Source: Paenibacillus sp. NAIST15-1 (lineage in GTDB: Bacteria > Bacillota > Bacilli > Paenibacillales > Paenibacillaceae). Taken from it: 64,000 nucleotides of DNA. A program made the position numbers and the translations under genes. The notes beneath the pieces are model-generated. The model had not been told where the DNA came from. It searched no databases and saw nothing but the letters and a program-made list of their open reading frames with translations. The stretch spans positions 62,001 to 126,000 of the forward strand of contig NZ_BBYF01000019.1 of assembly GCF_001894745.1 (NCBI RefSeq). Direction: 5' to 3'. Of the stretch, positions 57,581 to 60,207 are shown one piece after another (the first letter of the stretch is position 1; every line of letters begins with the position of its first letter).

Positions 57581-58108
57581 TTAGGTAAGTGTAATTTCTT
57601 TCATTTCGAGTGGCATCGATTGCTCCGCGGCCTCTACCTTGCCTTGAACAGCCTTCTGATGCCGCTTCAATTGGATCCTCCAATCGTTCATCTCCTGATC
57701 CGTCAATGCATGGAACGTCTCAACCTTCCTGCTCGTTCCGTCCTTAAGAACGACAACGAACTTGGGGAATACCGGGACGAACAAGATGCCCACTCGACCT
57801 TGCTCGACACGAATATCGACTACATCTACCCATGCTGCGCGGAGCCCATATTCATTCCATATTGTCTCCTGATCATAGGTCAGTAGGATATTGGTTCCTG
57901 CTGTTAAGGCACGCACGGATACGACGAGATTGCTCCCGCAATAAGCGAATCCAATGCACGCAGCCGCTGCCAGGGCAATTCGCAAGCTGAGCGGCAATTT
58001 GAAATCGAGCACGGCCAGAACGATAAGGCCCGCCGAGAATAGGATACAAATGAATGCAATGAACAATCGGGCTGCTGCTTTCTGTTTCTGATATACGACA
58101 TGATGCAT
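57581..58108 (-). CDS. Membrane protein with PH-like C-terminal domain, unknown
   Basis: A 175-residue protein. Two membrane helices (about residues 13-32 and 38-58) precede a soluble part (about 65-150) rich in beta strands, TILLTYDQETIWNEYGLRAAWVDVVDIRVEQGRVGI, which looks like a bacterial PH or YcxB-like domain. The tail after residue 150 is helical and charged. GGGAG precedes ATG 58108. The family is not recognised with certainty. Confidence 0.65.
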   Translation of the reverse strand: MHHVVYQKQKAAARLFIAFICILFSAGLIVLAVLDFKLPLSLRIALAAAACIGFAYCGSNLVVSVRALTAGTNILLTYDQETIWNEYGLRAAWVDVVDIRVEQGRVGILFVPVFPKFVVVLKDGTSRKVETFHALTDQEMNDWRIQLKRHQKAVQGKVEAAEQSMPLEMKEITLT

Positions 58109-58218
58109 AGCGCATTTCTCCCTTTCCCACAGGTTGTTCAGTAGCTTTATTCCCACTTCGACGAGCTGTACCGATTCCCCTTCCTACTCCATTCGACAAT
58201 ATGCCATTATTATTCTAA

Positions 58219-59133
58219 TTATGCACCTGCACGCTCTATCTTCTCTCTTGTGCTCGTCTTCTTCTGATTCACCAGAGTCAGCTGCGGCAAACAGATGCCT
58301 CCTAAAATCAGTACGATTCCTGCCCACTGCAACATCGTAACTTGTTCCCGGAGAACAAGTACAGACATCACTACCGCTGCCGGCAGCTCAGCCGCTCCTA
58401 AAATCGTGCCTAGTCCAGAACCAATCTTCGGGACACCTATTCCGAAGAAAATGACCGGGATAATAATGCCCAGCAGCCCCATAGGCAATCCGAACTTCCA
58501 CAGTCCATCTACCAAGGTGCCATCCATAATGAATACTGGCGGGAACATGAGGAATACAACTACCATAGCTCCCGTAATCATGGATAAGCTCTTCGTCAAA
58601 ATAGGCACATCGGTTGCAACACGCCCACTCACAAAAATATATATCGCAAACGATATTGCGGAAATCATTCCGAACACCGCCCCTTTCCAGCTCAATCCGG
58701 ACAATCCATGATCAGCAAGACCGCCCGCGAAGACAGTACCTACGAGCAGGATGATAACCGAAATGATCTTCATCGGTTCAGGGCGCGTGCGCGTAACAAC
58801 CGCTTCCAGCAATACACCAATCCACGTAAATTGGAATAGAAATACAACTGCTATGGAGGCTGGCAATTCTCCTACGGCAAGGCCGTACGTAATCGATGTG
58901 CAGCTCACAGACAATCCGCAAGCGAGCAGCACAGCGGCTTGCTTCCAGCGCAGCTTATGCCGTGAGAAGAGTAGTGTCATAACCACAAGCATCAGCCACC
59001 CAAAGAAATATTGTCCGCCTACAATCTCTGGAACGGTAAACCCTTCTCCGATCCCGAGCTTCATTATGGAAGACAGAGTTCCATAGCTGCAAGCCCCAAG
59101 GAATACAAGCAAAGCATACTGAAGTAATTTCAT
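58219..59133 (-). CDS. EamA/DMT-family permease
   Basis: A 304-residue transporter of the drug/metabolite superfamily with ten membrane helices arranged as two EamA repeats (about residues 5-140 and 150-290; VFLFQFTWIGVLLEAV and ELPAAVVMSVLVLREQVTMLQWAGIVLILGGI). The start is ATG 59133, with AGGAG twelve bases before. An attenuator-like leader precedes it, so its expression probably depends on a signal tied to the exported or imported metabolite, which is unknown. Confidence 0.87.
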   Translation of the reverse strand: MKLLQYALLVFLGACSYGTLSSIMKLGIGEGFTVPEIVGGQYFFGWLMLVVMTLLFSRHKLRWKQAAVLLACGLSVSCTSITYGLAVGELPASIAVVFLFQFTWIGVLLEAVVTRTRPEPMKIISVIILLVGTVFAGGLADHGLSGLSWKGAVFGMISAISFAIYIFVSGRVATDVPILTKSLSMITGAMVVVFLMFPPVFIMDGTLVDGLWKFGLPMGLLGIIIPVIFFGIGVPKIGSGLGTILGAAELPAAVVMSVLVLREQVTMLQWAGIVLILGGICLPQLTLVNQKKTSTREKIERAGA

Positions 59134-59165
59134 ATTGATGTCAAGCTCCTCTCGCTTATACACGC

Positions 59166-59316
59166 AAAAAAGCCCCCTGCGTTCTATAGCAGGGGGCGAA
59201 CGAAACCAAGCGCTGTGGCAATACAAAGCTGTGCGTTCTTCTACCGAACGCGGCCACTCACACGCCTTTGCAAAATTTCGCCTCTCTATTCACACCTTCA
59301 GACACTGTGAATAGAG
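59166..59316 (-). promoter_or_regulatory. Structured attenuator-type leader of the EamA gene
   Basis: In the direction of transcription: a long hairpin (59284-59316, arms CTCTATTCACA/TGTGAATAGAG); a nested element with outer GTGGC/GCCAC (59253-59257 with 59215-59219) and inner GCGTTC/GAACGC (59246-59251 with 59233-59238); and a strong terminator GCCCCCTGC/GCAGGGGGC (59172-59197) with a six-T run (59166-59171), 33 bases before the EamA start. GAACGC occurs again in the terminator loop and arm (59179-59184), so GCGTTC could pair with either. I could not fit it to a known riboswitch or to the T-box motif. Confidence 0.55.
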
Positions 59317-59489
59317 TTTGGTGCATGCCGTTCTATTTATGCCCTTCCATTGTAGTAAGCTTCCTTCACGCTGTCAATGAATAGATTCATTCGGGCAGCA
59401 GCAGAATCCAAGTAGTTCCTCCAACGACCGGCGCAACTTGTGTTACAATATAAGCATCATACGCTGTCAATAAAGATAGGAGCGGCACC

Positions 59490-60161
59490 ATGTTAGCAAT
59501 TATTTATGATTTGGAAATGACCGTAAAGCGCAAAAAAGGGGCGTTTGCCGAAATCATTGAAATTGGGGCGGTGAAAGTGACGGAGAACGAGGGAACATTC
59601 GCCGTTGCTGACACGTTTCAAGCGTTCGTCAAACCGACTCTTTCCCCCAAGTTAACAGATGATACTGTTAATTTTACCGGTATTACACAAGAGGATATTA
59701 CACATGCCTCCACCCTGCAGGATGTCCTTGATCAATTCATCGCGTGGATTGATACGGATGACTATGCACTATGTTCCTGGGGGCCGGATGATAAATCCCA
59801 ATTCCTAAAGGAATGCCGCCAGAAGAAGATTCCACTGTACTGGCTTCGCAATCATAACAATTTGCAAAAGCAAGTATCTACTGCCCTGAAACGTGAGCAT
59901 AATCAGCAGATTGGACTTAAGGCAGCGCTGGAAGCACTGGACGTCCCGTTCGTCGGGAATCAGCACCGGGCACTGGATGATGCCTACAACACAGCACTCG
60001 TATATATACAGATGCAGGAGCACATTCAGTTGACTCGCAATGAGGTTCAAGAACATCCGAGCTATGAGAGCAATGTTGTATATCGAGATGATACAAGCAA
60101 TGAGGATCGAGACAATCCATTCGCAGCGCTTGCCAATTGGAATATGGACGAAGACAAATAG
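59490..60161 (+). CDS. DEDDh 3'-5' exonuclease, KapD-like
   Basis: A 223-residue nuclease of the DnaQ superfamily. Motif I is YDLEMT (Asp and Glu), ending in EIIEIGAVKV; motif II CSWGPDDKSQFL has the second Asp; motif III GNQHRALDDAYNTALVY has the His and last Asp of the DEDDh type. The variant DLEMT and the Trp-Gly-Pro-Asp-Asp motif match the KapD/ERI-1-like group, acting on RNA or DNA ends. AGGAG lies before the ATG. The last 45 residues are acidic and probably disordered. Confidence 0.85.
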   Translation: MLAIIYDLEMTVKRKKGAFAEIIEIGAVKVTENEGTFAVADTFQAFVKPTLSPKLTDDTVNFTGITQEDITHASTLQDVLDQFIAWIDTDDYALCSWGPDDKSQFLKECRQKKIPLYWLRNHNNLQKQVSTALKREHNQQIGLKAALEALDVPFVGNQHRALDDAYNTALVYIQMQEHIQLTRNEVQEHPSYESNVVYRDDTSNEDRDNPFAALANWNMDEDK

Positions 60162-60207
60162 AACACGGTTTGTCCCGAGATGGGGCAAACCGTGTTCTAT
60201 TTACTTT
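60158..60207 (+). terminator. Terminator of the exonuclease gene
   Basis: A 15-base perfect stem (ATAGAACACGGTTTG/CAAACCGTGTTCTAT) begins inside the stop codon and is followed by TTACTTT. Confidence 0.85.

What the first reader, a model, noticed from the sequence alone, without database searches (positions are those of the whole stretch)
59166..59316. Possible new riboswitch-like attenuator before an EamA permease
Three hairpins end in a classical terminator 33 bases before the start codon. The strand GCGTTC (59251-59246) can pair either with its own partner (59238-59233) or with the identical GAACGC inside the terminator (59184-59179), which gives a simple on/off switch. It did not fit the riboswitch or T-box consensus sequences I know.
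Basis: partly seen in the sequence, partly recalled or inferred. Interest (0 to 1): 0.65.

Follow-up and report, generated by a model that had tools for sequence, protein, structure and literature searches.

The report
Candidate riboswitch controlling an EamA exporter
Ahead of a membrane-exporter gene in Paenibacillus-type bacteria lies a conserved, probably knotted RNA element that very likely decides whether the gene's transcript is cut short or completed; it matches no catalogued RNA family tested, and what it senses is unknown.

Summary
The leader (minus strand, about 59342-59166) follows a near-perfect promoter and ends in an intrinsic terminator 32 bases before an EamA gene. Covariance searches found 49 copies in 48 genomes (three families, two orders of one class). 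48 of 49 lie directly before an orthologue of this gene; the other is cut off from it by a group II intron. Core: XAAA, hairpin P1, GRCGR-AAY-UUUY', hairpin P3, RUU-UCRN-UCGYC, terminator. P1, P3 and the terminator covary. P2a (GRCGR:UCGYC) pairs in 47 of 47 rows, with one compensatory change, and its 3' strand is the foot of the terminator in 44 of 44 copies examined, so the two exclude each other. XAAA:UUUY' is a likely pseudoknot (X:Y' standard in 40 of 47). No Rfam family reached its threshold. Most likely it is an undescribed ON riboswitch: a ligand holds P2a together, blocks the terminator and switches on the exporter. The ligand is unknown; a protein sensor is not excluded.

The parts
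59349..59377 (-). Sigma-A-type promoter TTGACA-17-TACAAT; predicted transcription start near 59342 (inferred from spacing)
   Evidence: 11 of 12 consensus positions. A promoter-like site with 9 or more of 12 lies within 140 bases upstream of the motif in 48 of 49 copies, against 43 of 391 control stretches from the same loci; with 10 or more, 44 of 49 against 4 of 391.
59317..59320 (-). XAAA (here CAAA): 5' strand of the proposed pseudoknot
   Evidence: AAA in 47 of 47 rows; X:Y' standard in 40 of 47 (C-G 20, U-A 14, G-C 4, U-G 2; C.U 4, C.A 3).
59284..59316 (-). Hairpin P1
   Evidence: Outer six pairs canonical in 79.4% of cells, tree-based null mean 60.5%, 3 of 2000 as high.
59278..59282 (-). 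P2a 5' strand GGCGA (consensus GRCGR): antiterminator strand
   Evidence: Pairs with 59199-59195 in 47 of 47 rows; one compensatory event G-C to A-U.
59275..59277 (-). P2b 5' strand AAU (consensus AAY)
   Evidence: Pairs with RUU 59206-59204; two of three pairs invariant, third U-G 35, C-G 3, U-A 1, not standard or gapped in 8 of 47; no support beyond the null (921 of 2000).
59271..59274 (-). Bulge UUUG (consensus UUUY'): 3' strand of the proposed pseudoknot
   Evidence: UUU in 47 of 47 rows; Y' covaries with X (76 of 2000 nulls as high).
59207..59270 (-).
   Evidence: Helix canonical in 93.5% of cells, null mean 65.8%, 0 of 2000 as high. In the window copy itself two of the first six pairs are mismatched.
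59204..59206 (-). P2b 3' strand GUU (consensus RUU)
   Evidence: Alignment of 44 copies.
59200..59203 (-). Conserved 3' bulge UCGU (consensus UCRN)
   Evidence: UC in 44 of 44 anchored copies, partly required by the anchor pattern.
59195..59199 (-). P2a 3' strand UCGCC (consensus UCGYC), overlapping the terminator foot by 3 bases here
   Evidence: Overlap of 3 bases in 40 and 5 bases in 4 of 44 copies.
59166..59197 (-). Intrinsic terminator: stem 59197-59189/59180-59172 and U tract 59171-59166
   Evidence: the inner seven pairs covary, 99.0% of cells paired, five pairs with two-sided changes.
59146..59150 (-). Shine-Dalgarno-like AGGAG
   Evidence: Read from the sequence.
58219..59133 (-). EamA-family exporter gene, 304 aa
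   Evidence: Pfam EamA, E 3e-20; NCBIfam only below its cut-off (TIGR00950, 70.2 of 230.2 bits).

Best explanation
The leader is a conserved cis-regulatory RNA that controls transcription termination, most likely an undescribed riboswitch that turns the exporter ON. Shown by sequence comparison: promoter, covarying P1, P3 and terminator, an always-kept P2a pairing that overlaps the terminator foot, and linkage to one orthologous EamA gene. Inferred: while RNA polymerase is still in the terminator 5' arm, P2a forms and closes a core of conserved internal-loop bases, with XAAA docked on the UUUY' bulge as a pseudoknot. If a ligand (plausibly the exporter's substrate or a relative) stabilises this core, the foot of the terminator stem is unavailable and transcription runs into the gene. 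Without ligand the terminator, calculated to be 1-9 kcal/mol more stable, displaces P2a and transcription stops.
For: 49 copies in 48 genomes; 48 of 49 directly before the same EamA orthologue. Covariation: score 0.284 against at most 0.112 for slid partners, 0 of 500 shuffles; P3 0 of 2000 and P1 3 of 2000 tree-based nulls as high. P2a: GGCG:CGCC becomes GACG:CGUC in one clade. Pseudoknot pair X:Y' standard in 40 of 47, four pair types. P2a and terminator share 3 or 5 bases in 44 of 44. Transcripts cut in the terminator 5' arm form P2a with probability above 0.5 in 48 of 48, and the full leader favours the non-P2a fold by a median of 4.85 kcal/mol. Promoter upstream in 48 of 49. No Rfam family at threshold.
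Against: No ligand, no binding and no expression data. In an R-scape-like null no single pair is significant. P2a's support by change rests on one event (166 of 2000 nulls reach its pairing); P2b has no support beyond the null (921 of 2000); X:Y' is mismatched in 7 of 47 and reaches only 76 of 2000. The window's own P3 has two mismatches, and its predicted lowest-energy fold uses another register that coexists with the terminator. The hand-made alignment was built with the structure in mind. Narrow distribution: 2 of 104 genomes in the second family, no new genome in a sample of 189 of the phylum.
Confidence: 0.65

Rival explanations
1. The same attenuator RNA, but the sensor is a protein: an RNA-binding regulator recognises the conserved core and prevents or favours the terminator.
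For: Conserved unpaired bases and helices could equally be a protein-binding site; covariation and the P2a/terminator overlap say nothing about the kind of sensor.
Against: No regulator gene accompanies the RNA in the 12 contexts looked at by eye from translated frames (neighbours were not searched for domains). A distant, unlinked regulator would not be seen.
Confidence: 0.2
2. A riboswitch that works as an OFF switch: the ligand stabilises the alternative register (GRAAY:RUUUC plus pseudoknot), which coexists with the terminator.
For: This register is in the lowest-energy fold of most of the nine first copies and shares P2b and P3 with the other fold.
Against: Its extension beyond P2b is broken (C.A) in 19 of 47 rows, whereas P2a is kept in 47 of 47. 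An exporter is more usefully induced than repressed by its substrate (general knowledge).
Confidence: 0.15
3. Ribosome-dependent attenuation: translation of a short leader peptide decides which hairpins form (in the window TTG-CAA-AGG-CGT-GTG-AGT-GGC-CGC-GTT-CGG-TAG, four Arg codons).
For: The window frame has an SD-like sequence before it.
Against: No frame is shared: 19 of 49 leaders have no candidate by the same rule, the other peptides differ between clades, and part of those listed are artefacts of a script edge effect that over-reports.
Confidence: 0.02
4. A DNA-level element (operator or plain terminator of an upstream transcript) without regulatory RNA folding.
For: Terminator-like sites are common (mean 1.0 in shuffles of 801 bases), and P1 is also an inverted repeat in DNA.
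Against: Compensatory changes in P3, P1 and terminator, and a position between promoter and gene in 48 of 49 copies.
Confidence: 0.02

Closest known systems
Guanidine-IV riboswitch (GGAM-1) and its Gd4v variant
   Same: Short ON-type leader with a pseudoknot and a terminator before exporter genes (PMC7736828 passages; PMC9788692 Results part 1)
   Different: There: two hairpins joined by a pseudoknot, the 3' one being the terminator, before sugE, MATE, GNAT or transaminase genes. Here: three hairpins, the proposed pseudoknot does not involve the terminator, the terminator foot competes with P2a, and 48 of 49 copies precede an EamA gene.
ykkC subtype 2d orphan riboswitch candidates
   Same: Precede genes annotated as EamA (PMC7266159 passages)
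   Different: No ykkC-type match was listed in the window or in the copies scanned against Rfam.
PyrG_leader (RF02371)
   Same: Best sub-threshold Rfam match of one copy (L063: 40.5 bits, gathering 65; 19.2 and 19.8 bits in L110 and L094)
   Different: The only helix in that model is the terminator; the match starts inside P2a, and the gene is not pyrG.
PyrR binding site (RF00515)
   Same: Antiterminator/terminator leader; sub-threshold matches of 18.9-27.2 bits, gathering 54
   Different: Far below threshold; the alignment shown rests on generic stem-loops and the terminator; no pyrimidine gene.
Classical ON riboswitches with an intrinsic terminator
   Different: The core sequence and the XAAA/UUUY' contact match no family found in Rfam at threshold.

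Membership tests
Any Rfam 15 family | Score at or above the family's gathering threshold | tested here: not met
   0 matches in the window and in 7 loci that hold diverse copies; in L033 only group II intron matches. Other copies were not scanned.
Transcription-terminating attenuator | Promoter, leader, intrinsic terminator before the gene | tested here: met
   promoter in 48 of 49 copies; U-rich tail after the terminator stem in the copies listed
Transcription-terminating attenuator | Mutually exclusive, conserved alternative helix that uses terminator bases | tested here: met
   Overlap of 3 or 5 bases in 44 of 44; P2a paired in 47 of 47
Riboswitch | Direct, specific binding of a small ligand by the RNA | not testable with these tools
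   Needs in-line probing or binding assays
Riboswitch | Conserved structured aptamer with covariation | tested here: met
   for the helices as a set; no single pair significant
Guanidine-IV riboswitch | Two hairpins joined by a pseudoknot, the 3' hairpin being the terminator | tested here: not met
   Architecture from PMC9788692 compared; whether Rfam 15 holds this family was not checked
T-box | Match to the Rfam T-box model | tested here: not met
   No match at gathering
Leader-peptide attenuator | Conserved short reading frame overlapping the switch | tested here: not met
   19 of 49 leaders have no candidate frame; the others differ between clades
PyrG_leader | Gathering score and pyrG downstream | tested here: not met
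   40.5 of 65 bits at best in three copies scanned; the gene is EamA

The most novel reading that the evidence does not exclude
A new riboswitch class: a compact pseudoknotted aptamer (XAAA docking on a UUUY' bulge between P2 and P3) that senses the substrate of one EamA exporter subfamily and acts as a genetic ON switch in two orders of Bacilli-type bacteria, so that its ligand would reveal a metabolite these bacteria must expel.
Probability: 0.65. Interest if true: 0.72.

Novelty: new variant of a known kind. Interest (0 to 1): 0.62.

Why it matters
EamA-type exporters are widespread, yet what most of them export and what induces them is unknown; in B. subtilis most of their genes are among the least expressed, and they were called 'sleeping beauty' exporters (PMC11005379, passages read). 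A dedicated RNA switch in front of one such exporter gives a direct handle: whatever binds the RNA is probably the signal, and perhaps the cargo or its relative. It would also add an uncatalogued, probably pseudoknotted regulatory fold with a testable antiterminator/terminator logic.

Tried and rejected
Leader peptide: no shared frame. T-box and other Rfam families: no match at threshold; sub-threshold lists for the window and three copies. PyrG and PyrR leaders: sub-threshold. XAAA pairing instead with the RUUUC strand: possible in most copies but C.A in L041 (read); left as an alternative contact. A U.A-U triple between AAA and both U-rich strands: attractive, not testable here. Neighbouring genes as a ligand clue: none shared between genera in 12 contexts looked at by eye; the two contexts of one genus (L132, L133) do share neighbours; no domain search of neighbours was made. 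The 191-aa gene downstream has no Pfam or NCBIfam match. PDB sequences: no match to the exporter. Weak covariance-model hits: 11 inspected (L042, L049-L052, L074, L075; L098-L101), none has the core; the other hits with E above 1e-4 were not inspected and are taken as chance. R-scape-like test: no single pair significant.

Literature: text searches showed no description of this element; only open-licence papers are held, and the paper that I asked for by DOI as the 2017 survey of candidate RNAs (DOI recalled) is not held. PMC8632094, PMC11109978, PMC6429828 and PMC5670726 were searched for words only; no supplements were read.

Rows dropped: L097 (P2a degenerate, does not fit the anchors) from the hand-made alignment, from the tree-based test and from the state energies; L082 (exporter frame broken early) from the tree-based test and the protein tree; three of 45 rows collapsed as identical by the tool; one search used 43 rows, before the four copies of the third family were found.

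Full report
WHAT IS THERE. On the minus strand a near-perfect promoter (TTGACA-17-TACAAT, 59377-59349) is followed by a leader of about 176 nt (start site inferred) that ends in a 9-pair GC-rich terminator and six U, 32 bases before the ATG of a 304-residue EamA protein. The divergent neighbour is an RNase_T exonuclease gene (from 59490). The 180-nt leader folds 3.5 standard deviations better than its shuffles.

CONSERVATION. Blast with the leader matched 8 of 98 genomes, the window's own included. Relatives of the protein were found in 18 of 19 genomes of the genus. Nine of the ten close ones (67-100% identity, window included) share a leader with long invariant blocks. In the tenth (G015) the RNA lies on another contig, followed by a group II intron. 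A covariance model from nine leaders found 12 further copies in four other genera among 295 genomes (E at or below 2.2e-7). Models from 22 and 45 copies were run over 394 genomes of the family (42 with E at or below 2e-7), a sample of 392 of the order (adding 2 genomes with 3 places in a second family), 104 of that second family (the same 2), a sample of 250 of the class (adding 3 genomes of another order), 39 of that order (4) and a sample of 189 of the phylum (only two already known). Together: 49 copies in 48 genomes. The large scans used Infernal's stricter filters, so weak copies may have been missed. Two carriers bear names: Paenibacillus dendritiformis and Paenibacillus sp. 2.1. That the third family is Brevibacillus-like is my guess from memory, not a call.

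LINKAGE. 48 of 49 copies lie directly before an orthologue of the same EamA gene (in L082 the frame is broken early); genome G460 has two paralogues, each with its own copy. In 187 genomes of the family (of 394) the protein search listed 51 places at E 1e-60 or better. Of the 20 with 46% identity or more, 19 carry the RNA; the exception (G207, L122) is a gene that has lost about 42 N-terminal codons and the leader. Of the 31 with 45% or less, none has a covariance match at E 2e-7 or better. In a protein tree of 59 sequences (48 motif-bearing, 9 without, 2 more distant) the 48 fall in one clade that also holds L122 (support 0.861). Neighbouring genes are not shared between genera in the 12 contexts looked at; two contexts of one genus share theirs. 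The RNA has therefore travelled with this one gene, as a cis-acting control would.

STRUCTURE. 44 of 45 copies fit the anchors and give 5'-XAAA-[P1]-N-GRCGR-AAY-UUUY'-(N)-[P3]-RUU-UCRN-UCGYC-terminator. On the model-fitted alignment (45 rows, 42 distinct) 94.9% of cells pair and 17 of 30 pairs have two-sided changes (shuffles 10.2 +/- 1.6, 0 of 500). The covariation score is 0.284, against at most 0.112 when partners are slid by 1-3 columns. That alignment leans to its model, so I also made one by hand (48 rows; 47 with a protein were used) and compared it with nulls in which each column keeps its changes but on random branches of the protein tree. P3 is canonical in 93.5% of cells (null mean 65.8%, 0 of 2000 as high) and P1 in 79.4% (60.5%, 3 of 2000). 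P2a is canonical in 100%, but its columns hardly vary (166 of 2000 reach this); its one two-sided event is in the clade L094-L096 and L106, where GGCG:CGCC became GACG:CGUC. P2b has no support beyond the null (921 of 2000). The pseudoknot pair X:Y' is standard in 40 of 47 (null mean 36%, 76 of 2000), with C-G 20, U-A 14, U-G 2 and, in the third family, G-C 4; it is C.U in 4 and C.A in 3. In a stricter R-scape-like null on 43 rows no single pair reaches significance, with 160 substitutions on a few clades. The hand-made alignment was built with the structure in mind. In the window's own copy P3 has two mismatches among its first six pairs.

THE SWITCH. The terminator 5' arm uses 3 (40 copies) or 5 (4 copies) of the five bases of the P2a 3' strand in 44 of 44 copies. 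The four with 5 are those where P2a changed to GACG:CGUC; their terminators have 13 pairs. In transcripts cut within the terminator 5' arm the central P2a pair has probability above 0.5 in 48 of 48 (median 0.995). In the complete motif the best fold is more stable than the best fold with P2a forced by a median of 4.85 kcal/mol (1.2 to 9.2; window 5.1; pseudoknot not modelled). So by calculation P2a forms first and is lost to the terminator unless something adds a few kcal/mol, which is the energy scale of ligand binding. The alternative register GRAAY:RUUUC, seen in the lowest-energy folds of most of the first nine copies, shares AAY:RUU with the P2a fold, but its extension is broken (C.A) in 19 of 47.

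INTERPRETATION. I hold a transcription attenuator to be about 95% likely on this evidence. The most economical sensor is the RNA itself: a compact, probably pseudoknotted core with conserved unpaired bases, no accompanying regulator gene seen, and no shared leader peptide. Exporter genes are usefully induced by what they export, and the overlap of P2a with the terminator foot predicts an ON switch. These last steps are inference. A protein sensor (0.2) and an OFF switch (0.15, overlapping) remain open.

KNOWN OR NEW. No Rfam 15 family reaches its gathering score in the window or in seven loci with diverse copies. Without the score limit the best match is PyrG_leader in one copy (40.5 of 65 bits), whose only helix is the terminator; in two other copies it scores 19-20 bits. 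Guanidine-IV differs in architecture (PMC9788692, Results part 1 of 3). ykkC 2d RNAs also precede EamA genes (PMC7266159 passages), but no ykkC match was listed. The text searches named in Tried and rejected found no report of this element; subscription papers and supplements were not covered. I therefore call it an apparently undescribed class within a known kind, riboswitch-like attenuators.

WHAT WOULD SETTLE IT. In vitro termination with P2a and XAAA/UUUY' mutants and rescues, then ligand screening by in-line probing and an exporter-deletion reporter strain.

Noticed in passing
L033 532-829 (G015 contig C247): A group II intron (Rfam E 5.2e-32 and 7.8e-12) follows the attenuator on the same strand, its sequence seeming to start 1-2 bases after the U tract; it separates the RNA from its exporter gene, which lies on another contig.
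   Followed up: partly
L122 around 1449-2270 (G207): The EamA orthologue has lost about 42 N-terminal codons, and the region before it lacks the attenuator.
   Followed up: partly
L107 and L108 (G460): One genome carries two EamA paralogues, each with its own copy of the RNA.
   Followed up: partly
L082 (G413): The exporter frame is broken after about 62 residues behind an intact-looking attenuator; a real decay or a sequencing error.
   Followed up: no
window 60159-60198: A long inverted repeat with flanking A/T runs lies between the ends of the aldo-keto reductase gene and the exonuclease gene; it looks like a bidirectional terminator.
   Followed up: no
window 57581-58156: A gene of 191 aa lies directly downstream of the EamA gene on the same strand, without a Pfam or NCBIfam match.
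   Followed up: partly
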